From Nannobrachium achirus (Eukaryota; Chordata; Actinopteri; Myctophiformes; Myctophidae): 64,000 nt of DNA. The notes under the pieces are model-generated. The model was not told where the DNA came from, searched no databases, and saw nothing but the letters and a program-made list of their open reading frames with translations. The stretch is from contig OY997639.1 in assembly GCA_963921795.1 (NCBI GenBank), positions 45,605,240 through 45,669,239 on the forward strand, in the 5' to 3' direction. The translations under genes and the position numbers were made by a program. Below, piece by piece: positions 11 to 53,614 of this stretch. Within the stretch, counting starts at the first letter, position 1. Each line of letters begins with the position of its first letter.

Positions 11-262
11 TAGTGGCTTAAAGTAAAGTAAGTACATTTAGTACATTTACTAAAGTACTGACTTAACCAAACAATGTACTTTTACTCCACTACATTTATT
101 TGAAAACTTTAGTTGCTATTACTTTACACATGTTGATTATTAGTACATACATTTACCACTACAATCCCATATACATTTCGGCCATTTGAAAATAGCCGAT
201 CTACAAGCTCACAATGCGTTGAAACAGGACATTCCACATAACGAGTACTTTTCCCACCACTG
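11..262. mobile_element. hAT-like MITE, family A (short copy)
   Basis: The ends read TAGTGGCTTAAAG and CCCACCACTG. Both sides are flanked by the same octamer, catttaag (3-10 and 263-270), an 8-bp target duplication as made by hAT transposases. The inside holds the family-typical text of repeated GTACTTTTACTCCACTAC. It has no coding capacity. A one-armed copy of the dispersed hairpin lies at 185-220. Family A recurs at 2078, 2954, 12573, 40263, 51302 and 58733. The superfamily call rests on the octamer and is an inference. Confidence 0.75.
185..220 (+). repeat. Dispersed hairpin, one arm only
   Basis: This is the left arm of the GATCTACAAGCTCA hairpin, ending at the loop-side AATGCGTT. No right arm follows. 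It sits inside the family A MITE at 11-262. Confidence 0.7.
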
Positions 263-450
263 CATTTAAGTAAGGTATTTGGAATTTCAAGATAAATAAA
301 TACATCCGTAATAATCTGTGTGGCTATATGAGTAAGCATGTAATAACACCCTCAGTTGATAATTTGGGAATCCATGAAGTCTTTAACTGCCTTGTACAAC
401 TAGTCCGACAAGGTCACATAAAGCACTGCTCCAATTTCATGCCTGACCTA

Positions 451-534
451 GTGTGTGTGTGTGTGTGTGTGTGTGTGTGTGTGTGTGTGTGTGTGTGCGT
501 GTGCGTGTGCGTGTGCGTGTGTGTGTGTGTGTGT
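451..534 (+). repeat. (GT)n microsatellite with GTGC interruptions
   Basis: About 84 bases of GT dinucleotide with four GTGCGT interruptions near the 3' end. Open frames of alternating Cys/Val or His/Thr across it are artefacts. Confidence 0.97.
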
Positions 535-1470
535 GAGAGAGAGGCATTCCAGTTATAGTGAAGGCATGCTTTGGCCAGAACACACACATGGTTAGTTTCC
601 ATGACCTCAACCTCATGCTGTTAAAATGTACATGGCATGCACATACACACACACACACATACAGTACACATGCCCGCACATTCACATCCATACAATGTCT
701 CTTTCTTTCTCTCTGTCCCTCCCACCCCCCCTTCCTCCTCCCATCCTCCTGAGTCTGCCTCCAACCCTCTCAAAGTTAAAATGTCACATTTCTTCATTTC
801 CCATTCAGTTACTTGCTAATCCACAGAGAGAATGAGGACTGCGCTTTGGAATTCCACTGGAGAATCATCGTCCCTGCAACAATTACGACAATTAGCTAAC
901 ATTTAACTGGTTTACCGGGAGAACCAGTAAACCAGGCTCAAACTATAGACCAATGTAGTGGAAACTGGCCAATTAATTCCTCTGTAATTGCTCAGTGGCA
1001 ACTGTCAGTCAGTCACATTCACACTGTCTCACTATTGGCAGGCTGTCAACCTGTGTGCTTCTTTTTCAGTGTGTCTGTGACTGTCTCTTTTTTGACATTT
1101 GTCTTTCTTCTCTCCTTCTCTCCCTACATTCTCCACATCGTCCTGTGATCCATGCATCCCTATCTGTCTGTCCCCCTTCTCCTTTCAGCACACATTCCGT
1201 ACAAATAGCCCTAAGTAGCCTCCTGGCTTACAGGGTGTCAATCAACTGTGGACCACCTCCCCTCGCTGGGGATGACTGGTTGTCATGGAGGTGCATACCA
1301 AAGCATTTACATCACAGCCGCGCTGCGACTCAGCGCTTTTTAACTCTCAGGTTACCCTGAGAAAAATGACATGCTTTGAAAAAACACTGTCATGTTTAAC
1401 CACTTAAAAGCCTACTTCTAGTTGACCGGGGTGCCCCAGGGGTCTGGACCAAAAATCAGATCTACTAGCT
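535..1470. other. No gene seen; pyrimidine-rich intergenic DNA
   Basis: Contains a short CA run near 643-660 and CT/CCT-rich stretches at 695-760 and 1080-1190. No splice-bounded coding segment, RNA gene or full transposon was recognised. The 121-residue frame at 995-1360 has no recognisable composition or motif. Confidence 0.5.
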
Positions 1471-1804
1471 CACTGTTTCCCAAACATTCTTATGGGTCCC
1501 TTAATTTCTTTTTGGTAATCATTATTATTTCAAACATCTTCAATAAACATTTCCAAAAAAGCCTTTTTTTTTTCATTATTAAAAACAAAATTCAAAGCTT
1601 TTTCTGTAATTTCATGAAGAAATCAAAGAAAAAGCAAAGAAATCCCATAAATTAGAAAACAAATGCTTAAGAAGTATTGAAAATAGCCGATCTATAAGCT
1701 CACAACGGGTGAGCTTGTAGATCTGCCGTTTTCACTAGTTTGGGTCCCGGGCAAATGTCTAGTCTCTCTTTTGGGTCACTGGCTAAAAAGTTTGGGAACC
1801 ACTG
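1471..1804. mobile_element. hAT-like MITE, family B
   Basis: Termini CACTGTTTCCCAAAC and GTTTGGGAACCACTG form inverted repeats. A perfect 8-bp target duplication, tactagct, flanks it (1463-1470 and 1805-1812). It is 334 bp and non-coding. It carries a hairpin at 1678-1733. The sequence it landed in is itself a degenerate hairpin copy. A second family member is at 7349-7707. Confidence 0.85.
1678..1733. repeat. Dispersed hairpin, two arms
   Basis: Left arm TGAAAATAGCCGATCTATAA, then a short loop with CACAACGGG, then right arm GAGCTTGTAGATCTGCC followed by GTTTTCAC. It lies within the family B MITE. Confidence 0.8.
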
Positions 1805-2324
1805 TACTAGCTCACAGCGTGGCGCAATGTTAAGCAATGTGAGCTTGTAGATCCATGAATTCTCACTATTGTTCTTCAAATCGTTGCCTATTATGAAATG
1901 GGCCAGAATAGGGACGCCATGATTCATGTGGTGAAGAAACAGATAGAGGGCAGAAGGGATGCCAAGAGAATGACAGAAAGATGGACACATTGGTGGAGGA
2001 CAGAAACTCTAGCTTTGGCTTAGGCCTTTTAGGATTCTTTGGGATTCATGTGTACAGACTACAGAGTGAGAAATAAGCAGTGGTGTGAAGTAACTAAGTA
2101 CATTTACTTAAGTACTGTGCTTATAAGTAACATTTTCAAGTTTTTGTAATTAGTATTTCCAATTTTCTATACTTTTACTTCTACTCCACTACTACTCAAA
2201 TCCAACAATTGCACTTTTACTCCACTACAATTATTTAAAAACTTTAGTTACTAGTTATTTTGCAGATATTACATTATAATATTATAAAAATAACCAATTT
2301 AGCCCTATTTTATACCTAGGCTGT

Positions 2325-2403
2325 TTGAAAATATCCGATCTACAAGCTCACAATGCGTTGCGATGTGACACGTTGTGAGCTTATAATAGATCGGCTATTT
2401 TCT
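2325..2403. repeat. Dispersed hairpin, two arms
   Basis: Left arm GAAAATATCCGATCTACAAG; right arm carries a small insertion (TTATAATAGATCGGCTATTTT). Host is family A. Confidence 0.75.
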
Positions 2404-2455
2404 AACTTTTGGTACTTTATGTACATTTTGACACTTTCACACTTTTACTCAATAT

Positions 2456-2543
2456 GGGTGCACACACACCAAAATATGTTCGCCAGAGGATAAACTCTTT
2501 CACACATGCAAACTCTCATTGGTATTTTGGTGTGTGTGCACCC
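2456..2543. mobile_element. 88-bp miniature inverted-repeat insert
   Basis: Begins GGGTGCACACACACCAAAAT and ends with its exact complement, leaving about 45 bases between the arms. It interrupts the family A element. It was seen once in the window, so mobility is inferred from the nested position. Confidence 0.6.
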
Positions 2544-52175: not shown

Positions 52176-52247
52176 GGGGGGTCGCACCAAATTCTGGGCC
52201 CTGGGTACAAGGATTCACTCACATTTTGTGCTTTAAAAAGTTGCTAT

Positions 52248-52683
52248 ATGCAGTTTTCTGCTGAGATAAGCAGGCAATTCCTTATTATTATTTTTTTTAC
52301 TTTATTATATTCAGACGGCTAACCATGCTTCCTAAAGAAATGTTGTCTCTGTGACACTTCCTGGGGCCACAATCTGCCGCCAAAACTATAATTTTCCTCT
52401 GTGAGAAGTTCTATCATTGGTCGATAGACAGATAGCCTGCCCAGTAAGCAGAGGCTGCAATCAGGACCGCCTCTTGTTGTTGTTCGGATTGGTTGACCTG
52501 TCTGTCAATCCTTTTAGCCCCGGTCGGCTGGTTCATGCACCAATGAGCTGCTAGTGACAGAGACTAGATTCTTTTTAGGGAGCATTGTTTAGCCGCCTGA
52601 ATATAATTAAATAAAATTAAAAAATTAAAATAAGCAATTGCCTGTTTCCTGCTTATGTCAGCAGAAAACTGCTTATAGCAACT
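52248..52683. mobile_element. TTAA-type MITE with long inverted ends
   Basis: About 55-base imperfect inverted ends (AAGTTGCTATATGCAGTTTT and its complement) sit between TTAA at 52244-52247 and 52684-52687. Comparison with the uninterrupted paralogue near 28060 shows the empty site directly. Confidence 0.85.
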
Positions 52684-52691
52684 TTAACCAT

Positions 52692-52768
52692 TGAAAAATA
52701 GCAGATGTACAAGCCCACAGCGCGGCGCCGAGTGCCACGCTGCGAGCTTGTAGATCTGTTATTTTTGA
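52692..52768. repeat. Dispersed hairpin, GCGGCGC variant
   Basis: TGAAAAATAGCAGATGTACA with TGTAGATCTGTTATTTTTGA. The inner stem is CAGCGCGGCGC / GTGCCACGCTG. Confidence 0.8.
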
Positions 52769-53012
52769 AAAATTGTGAACATTTTTCATGGGGTCTTTGA
52801 ATATTTCAAATCCCTCTAAGGTTTTTGAAAAACCTATGTTTCTATGTCAGTGGTGCTCAAACGTTTTCATGTGAAGGACCCCCAAAATGATACGTATTTG
52901 GCCACATCTCAAAATATTTAGTTCCAGGGACCCCCCAGAAGCAAAATTGTATCTAAAAATGTTACCTTAAAAAATACCCATATTCAAAGATTTCCACACA
53001 TTTTCATGACTT

Positions 53013-53090
53013 AAAAAATAGCAGATCTACAAGCTCGCAGCGCGGCACTCAGTGCCGCTCTGTGAGCTTGTGGATCTGCAATTTTTCAAT
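53013..53090. repeat. Dispersed hairpin, GCGGCAC variant
   Basis: AAAAAATAGCAGATCTACAA with TTGTGGATCTGCAATTTTTC. The inner stem GCAGCGCGGCACT / AGTGCCGCTCTGTG is shared with 28242-28318. Confidence 0.8.
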
Positions 53091-53203
53091 AGCTAAAGTA
53101 TAAAATAACAATATAAAATCAAATTGGTTTAATCTCATGCTCTCAAGAGTGCTTGTTACAATAAAACACTTAAAATATCTGTAAATATTTTCTAAATCTA
53201 CAG

Positions 53204-53614
53204 CAGTGGTCCTCAGCCTTTTCAGGCTGTGACCCCCTAAATAATCATATTTTAACTGGGGACCCCCCACCCTGACAAGCATTAAGAGTTGAGGCATTAC
53301 ATTTTGTATAACTCGGTTATATTGTGAAAATAGCAGATCTACATGCTCACAACGCCTCGCGTTGTAGATCTGCTATTTTCACAATTTCTGGGTCTAATAT
53401 ATGCCAATTTGGCCAATGTTTAATTTGTCATTTTAGAAGTTTTAAAAAGTCCTTAAATTGTCACTTTAGAAATGTGCAGATACCCTCTATACACTTAAAC
53501 TTTATGTTGGTTTGTTTACTGTTGAGTGAGAAAACAGTGTTGCACATTAGGCTAATCTTCTGGAGACCCCCCAAAATAATTTGGGGACCCCCAGGCCCTG
53601 GTTGAGAACCACTG
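53204..53614. mobile_element. hAT-like MITE, family C
   Basis: Ends CAGTGGTCCTCAGCC and GGTTGAGAACCACTG. Octamers atctacag and atcaacag match at 7 of 8 bases. A hairpin is at 53321-53387 (GTGAAAATAGCAGATCTACA / TGTAGATCTGCTATTTTCAC). Confidence 0.8.
53321..53387. repeat. Dispersed hairpin, two arms
   Basis: A clean outer stem with short middle TGCTCACAACGCCTCGCGTT. Host is family C. Confidence 0.8.

What the first reader, a model, noticed from the sequence alone, without database searches (positions are those of the whole stretch)
185..53387. A short hairpin dispersed through six or more unrelated repeat families
The stem GAAAATAGC[A/C]GATCTACAAG followed by CTCACAACGCG and its complement is seen about 17 times with two arms (e.g. 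1678, 2325, 3147, 12798, 16088, 19221, 19708, 28242, 30796, 37398, 49943, 52692, 53013, 53321) and about 10 times with one arm. The hosts differ: hAT-like families A, B, C, D and E, family F and the 49409-50627 element. Loop-side variants (CACAACGCG, CACACAACGCCTCGC, GCAGCGCGGCAC) change in both arms together. Either it is a tiny mobile or foldback unit that invades other MITEs, or a structural part exchanged among them. I know of no named element with this sequence.
Basis: partly seen in the sequence, partly recalled or inferred. Interest (0 to 1): 0.85.

Follow-up and report, generated by a model that had tools for sequence, protein, structure and literature searches.

The report
Shared hairpin module in mini-transposons
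The same 73-letter hairpin sits inside at least ten different small "jumping gene" families of this genome, carried there at least partly by one kind of jumping gene landing inside another, so a short module has spread widely without clear evidence that it jumps by itself.

Summary
The window holds 15 two-arm hairpins. Genome-wide, two exact 14-nt arm cores 20-50 bp apart occur 47,141 times, reversed control 0; random loci extrapolate to about 370,000. Arms are 83% identical between ten host families, while adjoining flanks are no more alike than shuffled sequence.

It does not behave like a freely jumping unit: in the copies seen it keeps one place per family, and listed short copies of families B and C are mostly ragged deletions. 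In hAT families D and H it lies in a nested TTAA-ended MITE ("X", ends TTAACCACTTNARCC; 15,127 exact end-to-hairpin junctions, control 0), with TTAA on both sides in D and filled/empty sites in H. In A and E X-type ends beside it point the same way. hAT amplification then multiplied it (inferred).

In B, C, G, I, J and K no X ends were found; their route is open. Covarying arms, flipping loops and stems reaching into host flanks fit template switching, so covariation does not prove selection. Nearest analogy: conserved domains shared by unrelated SINEs. Repbase/Dfam could not be searched.

The parts
1471..1804 (.). hAT-like element, family K, exact 8-bp duplication TACTAGCT; itself inserted in an arm of another, broken hairpin; holds hairpin 1679-1733
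   Evidence: hairpin; alignment with L030 and L031 copies
1679..1733 (.). two-arm hairpin (55 bp) in K
2078..2646 (+). hAT-like element, family A (CAGTGGTGTGAAGTAACT...CCACCACTG), holds hairpin 2327-2402; no matching duplication read
2290..2402 (+). X-like end (ATAACCAATTTAGCCC, 4 mismatches to the X end) followed by hairpin 2327-2402
2954..3933 (-). hAT-like element, family A, exact duplication ACTGTATT on both sides; holds hairpin 3148-3220
   Evidence: ends and flanks; hairpin
12573..13064 (-). family A copy (one end truncated), hairpin 12799-12864
15960..16381 (+). hAT-like element, family B (CAGTGGTTCTCA...), duplication CTCCAGCA/CTCTAGCA; hairpin 16092-16160
19222..19268 (.). two-arm hairpin (47 bp) followed by an exact X end (TTAACCACTTGAACCC, outer edge at 19301, reverse strand)
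19605..19865 (+). MITE family C (not hAT-like ends), hairpin 19711-19783
23068..23257 (+). family C copy with only the right arm left
23986..25041 (-). hAT-like element, family D, exact duplication GTCTAAGG; hairpin mostly deleted, second insert inside
27935..28388 (+). hAT-like shell, family E, exact duplication GTTACAAA; TTAA-type end at 28020, single arm 28077, hairpin 28244-28316
30695..30933 (+). family C copy, hairpin 30798-30851
37157..37598 (+). hAT-like element, family D (CAGGGGTCTTCAACG...); right edge approximate, no matching duplication found
37310..37486 (+). TTAA-ended X element nested in D, TTAA at both sides, hairpin 37400-37442
40064..40136 (.). diverged 73-bp hairpin, unassigned; A-like sequence lies at 40250-40560
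49409..50627 (.). hAT-like element, family J (TAGGGATGGAGCTC), exact duplication CTTGCTAC; hairpin 49945-50017
   Evidence: hairpin
51302..51525 (+). A-like element whose hairpin site holds 3.2 direct tandem copies of one arm plus loop (51378-51525)
52694..53086 (.). family E interior with two hairpins, 52694-52766 and 53014-53086, in inverted arrangement
53204..53614 (+). hAT-like element, family B, duplication ATCTACAG/ATCAACAG; hairpin 53326-53380

Best explanation
The hairpin is an inner module of non-autonomous DNA transposons, not a free mobile unit. SHOWN: in one clan (X) it lies roughly 30-45 bp inside ends of the form TTAACCACTTNARCC, and a longer form (E) can have one hairpin near each end; X sits nested in the hAT-like MITEs D (TTAA on both sides) and H (filled and empty sites at TTTAA). 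INDICATED: X-type ends lie beside the hairpin in hAT-like families A and E. INFERRED: an X element landed at TTAA in a few hAT progenitors, and hAT transposase then multiplied the composites, so the hairpin rides on hAT amplification. INFERRED: in X each arm acts as a subterminal repeat (piggyBac-like layout: tip, spacer, inner repeat), and a hairpin forms because the two inner repeats have come together. INFERRED: template switching at the hairpin keeps the arms alike, flips the loop and lengthens the stem into host sequence. OPEN: families B, C, G, I, J and K hold the hairpin without recognisable X ends.
For: X ends: 51,267 exact TTAACCACTTNARCC in the genome, control 21; 15,127 followed within 15-45 bp by AAAATAGC, control 0; the 100 rows listed include spacers of types D, H, E and A. 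In the sample 24 of 34 X-type ends (wider motif, one mismatch) have an arm (up to 6 mismatches of 20) within 150 bp inside. D: 18 of 18 fetched two-ended X copies sit at the same TTAA of the same hAT-like element. H: L018 and L004 filled, L028 and L032 empty at TTTAA. E without the hAT-like shell and with TTAACCCATTTAGG at both ends: L009:8708-9292. Sharp edges: arms 0.827 identical over 45 family pairs (28 of 71 hairpins used), flanks 0.496 against 0.502 shuffled. Fixed site: 17 of 17 aligned C copies keep at least one arm (not all hits were aligned). Loop flips with host orientation fixed: 5 GGT, 3 ACC, 1 TGC, 1 GAT of 10 readable centres. Stem extends into host flanks: 3.51 of 6 bases complementary against 1.77 (sd 0.41), 1 of 2000 controls as high (39 of 71 hairpins). 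piggyBac layout: PMC2532691 passage, PMC11707139 passages. Template switching: PMC8604942 passages, PMC8794818 abstract. piggyBac transposase domains are abundant here.
Against: No X ends within 200 bp in B, C, G, I, J and K: best fits are at background level, so nesting in X is not shown for six of ten families. For A and E only X-type ends are seen, mostly on one side; one A copy (L013:6119) fits no better than background. A D copy without X was not found (7 hits against 5 in the control), so D has no empty site and its 18 copies are one insertion. In H the evidence is two filled and two empty copies that also differ elsewhere; L018 has lost the right end of X, and L004 was matched to H only around the site (73% over 119 columns). 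As scored, stem extension is weak or absent in E, G and H (H extends if shifted by one base), middling in A and J. One C copy has the arm mark exchanged between sides (L028:2445). K and C share 8-9 bp of flank on both sides of the hairpin, which X does not explain.
Confidence: 0.6

Rival explanations
1. The 73-bp hairpin is itself a mobile foldback unit that inserted once into the progenitor of each host family, X included, perhaps into small palindromes.
For: Sharp common edges in ten families with unrelated flanks; significant complementarity of host flanks, as expected for insertion at palindromes, which IS1272 is reported to target (PMC5678879 abstract). In C a clean junction recurs in 9 of 100 listed short forms, and TAGT lies on both sides of the hairpin; K also has TAGT on both sides.
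Against: No consistent target duplication across families; 57 of 71 hairpins can be placed by eye in families A-E and G-K; the C junction equals slippage between TAGT repeats at a hairpin base, and the other listed C and B short forms are mostly ragged deletions; no short K form with the anchors used.
Confidence: 0.2
2. The hairpin was passed between resident MITEs by recombination or template switching, with short flanks carried along.
For: K (hAT-like) and C (not hAT-like) share AAGTAGTG[hairpin]CACTAGTTT, flanks included; loops flip and arms are homogenised.
Against: In the sample each family keeps its own hairpin variant, so exchange is not frequent; X nesting explains D and H, and probably A and E, without it.
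Confidence: 0.25
3. All hosts descend from one ancestral element that already had the hairpin.
For: X subtypes D, H and A share ends and hairpin position.
Against: Ends differ between A, B, D, E, G, H, I, J and K, and C has other ends again; flanks of the hairpin are not alike.
Confidence: 0.05
4. Chance or assembly artefact.
For: None found.
Against: 0 control matches against 47,141 and 6,805 exact matches. An arm (up to 4 mismatches) is present in 19 of the first 20 random 10-kb loci, and a hairpin (up to 5 mismatches) in 6 of the 6 later ones.
Confidence: 0.01

Closest known systems
piggyBac-like (TTAA) elements and their MITEs
   Same: TTAA at both sides and short inverted ends in X; terminal repeat, spacer, inner repeat as in piggyBac (13 bp, 3 or 31 bp spacer, 19 bp; PMC2532691 passage).
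   Different: Inner repeat is about 31 bp or more and forms one long hairpin; no transposase linked to these ends; the hairpin also occurs in families where no TTAA ends were found.
SINE highly conserved domains (e.g. V domain), also carried by MITE MER6
   Same: A short conserved module shared by families with unrelated ends; spread by riding a DNA transposon burst (PMC6887750 title and abstract).
   Different: Here a palindrome in DNA transposons of one genome; conservation across species not testable here.
Repetitive hairpin elements of organelles (sponge RHE; Volvox palindromes)
   Same: Short hairpins dispersed in many copies (PMC2800124 abstract; PMC2670323 passages).
   Different: Those are described mainly in organelle genomes, outside genes; this one is in a large nuclear-type genome and mostly inside MITEs.
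hAT MITEs
   Same: Hosts A, B, D, E, J and K have hAT-like ends (recalled) and 8-bp duplications.
   Different: The hairpin is not part of the hAT-like ends.
Bacterial REP palindromes and IS1272
   Same: Short palindromes (REP: PMC3733652, search listing only); IS1272 targets inverted repeats (PMC5678879 abstract).
   Different: No evidence here of a dedicated enzyme or of palindrome replacement.

Membership tests
TTAA-type (piggyBac-like) MITE, for X | TTAA target duplication | tested here: met
   D: TTAA at both sides in 18 of 18 fetched copies, all one insertion; H filled and empty sites, two copies each
TTAA-type (piggyBac-like) MITE, for X | short terminal inverted repeats | tested here: met
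   TTAACCACTTGAACC at both ends of D copies
TTAA-type (piggyBac-like) MITE, for X | same ends as an element coding for a piggyBac transposase | not tested
hAT element, for hosts A, B, D, E, J, K | 8-bp target duplication | tested here: met
   exact in A (2954), D (23986), E (27935; L015:414-867), J and K; one mismatch in two B copies. Not every copy shows one (e.g. D 37157, A 2078)
hAT element, for hosts G, H, I | 8-bp target duplication | tested here: inconclusive
   ends look hAT-like; exact duplication CTCTAATA for the H-type copy L028:2254-2765, none scored for G and I
hAT element, all hosts | mobilised by a hAT transposase | not tested
   no hAT transposase search was made
Free mobile hairpin (RHE/REP-like) | solitary copies in unrelated unique sequence | tested here: inconclusive
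   57 of 71 hairpins assigned to MITE families by eye; 14 unassigned, e.g. L005:1507; some of the 14 have an X-type end (19222, L023:1066)
Free mobile hairpin (RHE/REP-like) | own target duplication | tested here: not met
   no consistent duplication at hairpin edges by eye; TAGT in C and K only
Structured RNA gene | match to a known RNA family | tested here: not met
   0 Rfam matches at gathering score in the window

The most novel reading that the evidence does not exclude
A short DNA hairpin is a transferable domain of DNA transposons: it was acquired independently by at least three kinds of element (hAT-like, TTAA-type, and the C family), has reached about 370,000 copies, and is kept because it helps whatever carries it to multiply, for example as a shared transposase-binding or replication-stalling structure. 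It would be the DNA-transposon counterpart of the conserved domains of SINEs.
Probability: 0.25. Interest if true: 0.85.

Novelty: new variant of a known kind. Interest (0 to 1): 0.6.

Why it matters
If it holds, one module of about 73 bp makes up as much as 1-2% of a 1.66-Gb genome (extrapolated) by riding on transposons of different enzymes. That shows how a part can spread between transposon superfamilies through nesting, and gives a natural test bed with very many copies for template switching at long hairpins (arm homogenisation, loop flips, stem growth, deletions). It also warns that covarying stems are not proof of selected structure.

Tried and rejected
Bare hairpin as a jumping unit: the edges of the 71 hairpins, read by eye, show no common target duplication. 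Covariation as proof of selection: rejected, because template switching gives the same pattern. Empty-site searches: B gave 136 short forms with many different junctions (the commonest, 7 of the 100 listed rows, lie within 1.04 Mb of C10); C gave 149 short forms, 9 of the 100 listed rows with one clean junction (35 rows came without text, none of them of that length); K gave 0; D gave 7 against 5 in the control. An automatic search for host ends plus 8-bp duplication scored only 5 of 71 hairpins; other ends were read by hand. A first fuzzy scan with insertions and deletions allowed missed most arms and was not used. RNA gene: no Rfam match, no tRNA, window only. Literature: no paper naming this sequence (listings and abstract starts; eight papers opened as told in the report). 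Not done: the autonomous partner of X, a hAT transposase search, and a short-form search for D with the wider anchors (not completed). The TTAACCCATTTAGRCC pattern did not complete either.
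Full report
WHAT WAS CHECKED. The window is G000:C2:45605240-45669239 of a genome of 1,658,514,493 bases. It looks like a bony fish (my inference; no name is given). All 14 listed positions hold a two-arm hairpin, within 5 bp, at up to 5 mismatches per 20-nt arm. I count 15 hairpins at that level; at up to 4 mismatches 14 hairpins and 11 single arms. Five first-order Markov copies of the window gave 1, 0, 0, 0, 0 arm hits. 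Rfam had no match in the window.

ABUNDANCE. Exact 31-mer arm: 3,439 + 3,366 matches, reversed control 0. Two exact 14-nt arm cores 20-50 bp apart: 47,141, control 0. In 26 loci of 10 kb taken at round coordinates (240,391 non-N bases) there are 54 hairpins at up to 5 mismatches, which extrapolates to about 370,000; at 73 bp each that would be about 1.6% of the genome, an upper figure because many are shorter. The commonest length is 73 bp (26 of 57). With the window (15) and two in loci fetched by search (L001:3009, L005:1507), the working set is 71.

HOSTS. By eye from the flanks 57 of 71 fall into ten families: E 22, C 11, A 6, B 6, D 3, G 3, K 3, H 1, I 1, J 1. Fourteen are unassigned; some of these have an X-type end (19222, L023:1066). 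Ends: A CAGTGGTGTAAAGTAACT, B CAGTGGTTCTCAACC, D CAGGGGTCTTCAACG and E CAGGGGCGTCACACC, G CAGGGACGTGCA, H CAGGGGTTTTCAAAC, I TAGGGCTGTCACAATTA, J TAGGGATGGAGCTC, K CAGTGGTTCCCAAAC. These look hAT-like (superfamily recalled, no transposase searched). Exact 8-bp duplications were seen for J (CTTGCTAC) and E L015:414-867 (TATGAAAC), and for K (TACTAGCT), A 2954-3933 (ACTGTATT), D 23986-25041 (GTCTAAGG) and E 27935-28388 (GTTACAAA) as read; other copies, such as D 37157 and A 2078, show none. C has other ends ((TA)TCGTC...GACGA(TA)); its duplication is probably TA but I did not prove it.

SHARP EDGES. Between the ten families the outer 25 bp of the arms are 0.827 identical on average (45 pairs, 28 of the 71 hairpins), while the next 25 bp outside give 0.496 in gapped alignment, against 0.502 for shuffled flanks. 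So the hairpin is homologous across families and the flanks in general are not. An exception: K and C share AAGTAGTG[hairpin]CACTAGTTT.

THE TTAA CLAN X. D and H showed the motif TTAACCACTTGAACCC outside the hairpin. Genome-wide the pattern TTAACCACTTNARCC occurs 25,792 + 25,475 times, control 6 + 15, and 7,592 + 7,535 matches are followed within 15-45 bp by AAAATAGC, control 0. The 100 rows printed contain the spacers of D, H, A and E and others. In the sample, 24 of 34 X-type ends (wider motif, one mismatch) have an arm (up to 6 mismatches) within 150 bp inside. E has a longer form with a hairpin near each end; L009:8708-9292 has TTAACCCATTTAGG at both ends and no hAT-like shell was seen around it. 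Eighteen two-ended X copies chosen from the rows all proved to be family D, with X at one and the same TTAA of the host: one insertion, then multiplied with the host. In family H, L018 and L004 carry X at GTTTAA, and L028 and L032 have the uninterrupted sequence there; only L004 keeps both X ends, and it was matched to H only around the site. No D copy without X was found (7 hits, control 5). In A an X-like end lies outside the hairpin with 2-5 mismatches in five of six copies, the sixth (L013:6119) being at background.

WHERE X IS NOT SEEN. For B, C, G, I, J and K the best fit to the X end within 200 bp is at background level. Short forms of B (136 genome-wide) show many different deletion points inside the hairpin (100 rows listed), and the two other I-family copies aligned show hairpin remnants. 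Short forms of C (149) are mostly ragged as well (65 of the 100 listed rows carry text), but one clean junction, AAAAGTAGTTTAAATC, recurs in 9 of the 100 rows at separate places. It may be slippage between the two TAGT repeats at the hairpin base, or the empty state with a TAGT duplication; I cannot tell. A short form of K was not found with the anchors used.

HOW THE HAIRPIN CHANGES. Both arms change together: 17 of 35 pairs with changes on both sides, 77 cells against 32.1 in shuffles, 0 of 500 shuffles; further pair types were reached by 9 of 500. In family C, with host orientation fixed, the loop reads GGT in 5, ACC in 3, TGC in 1 and GAT in 1 of 10 copies with a readable centre, while the arm mark at position 10 is A left and C right in 7 of 10 two-arm copies (T/C and A/A once each, and exchanged, C/A, in L028:2445): mostly the loop flips and the arms do not. 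Host flanks are complementary beyond the shared part: 3.51 of 6 bases averaged over ten families (39 hairpins) against 1.77 (sd 0.41) when left and right flanks of different families are paired, 1 of 2000 as high; B, C, D, I and K show it clearly, A and J are middling, E, G and H low as scored. Homogenised arms, flipped spacers and longer arms are reported results of template switching (PMC8604942, passages; PMC8794818, abstract). Arms also occur as direct tandem arrays: window 51378-51525 and about 16 copies of 31 bp on contig C180.

MECHANISM. Best reading: X elements inserted at TTAA into a few hAT-like MITEs, and these multiplied the composite. In X the arms stand where piggyBac has its inner repeats: 13-bp ends and 19-bp subterminal repeats with spacers of 3 or 31 bp (PMC2532691, passage), the 19-bp sequence being palindromic and bound by C-terminal domains of the transposase (PMC11707139, passages). 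piggyBac-type transposase domains are plentiful here: 116 scored matches of 952 candidates, most without stops. I could not read their ends, so the link is inferred. For the six families without X ends, loss of X ends, exchange between elements, and movement of the hairpin itself all remain possible.

RESULTS AGAINST. Six of ten families lack X ends; nesting in A and E rests on ends beside the hairpin; K and C share flanks that X does not explain; the clean C junction fits an insertion; stem extension would also fit insertion into palindromes, as described for IS1272 (PMC5678879, abstract).

KNOWN OR NEW. Comparable cases: conserved SINE domains, one carried by the MITE MER6 (PMC6887750, abstract); organelle hairpins of sponges (PMC2800124, abstract) and Volvox (PMC2670323, passages). 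Paper searches with the letters GATCTACAAG and GAAAATAGC gave no paper on such an element by title. Repbase and Dfam were not at hand, so a named consensus may exist.

Noticed in passing
window 1463-1812: The K element is inserted inside an arm of another, older hairpin (duplication TACTAGCT), which lies next to an X-like end at 1396: hairpin within hairpin.
   Followed up: partly
L001 (C180:10315-13374) about 1500-2000: About 16 direct tandem copies of a single 31-bp arm, flanked by a roughly 17-bp inverted repeat and an X-like end (read by eye).
   Followed up: no
L034:4208-5208: Minisatellite whose unit is a small palindrome of two X-like ends (AACCACTTGAACACTAGGCATGCTAGGGTTCAGGTGGTTAG) without the hairpin.
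   Followed up: no
window 9494-10384 and 11185-12075: 891-bp inverted repeat, 100% by the repeat finder and 99.6% by BLAST, with an 800-bp spacer; a 252-aa open frame lies in the spacer and a 216-aa one overlaps it. Recent inverted duplication or assembly effect.
   Followed up: no
window 34158-35552: Nested inverted and direct repeats (227-bp arms and a 167-bp tandem unit).
   Followed up: no
window 54071-55157 and 56904-57436: 130-bp tandem repeat in two arrays of opposite orientation; related two-copy array at 44363-44614.
   Followed up: no
G000:C2:71.35-71.84 Mb: Sixteen piggyBac-type transposase matches clustered in half a megabase.
   Followed up: no
G000:C10:10.31-11.35 Mb: Seven identical short family-B junctions within 1.04 Mb, probably a local duplication.
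   Followed up: no
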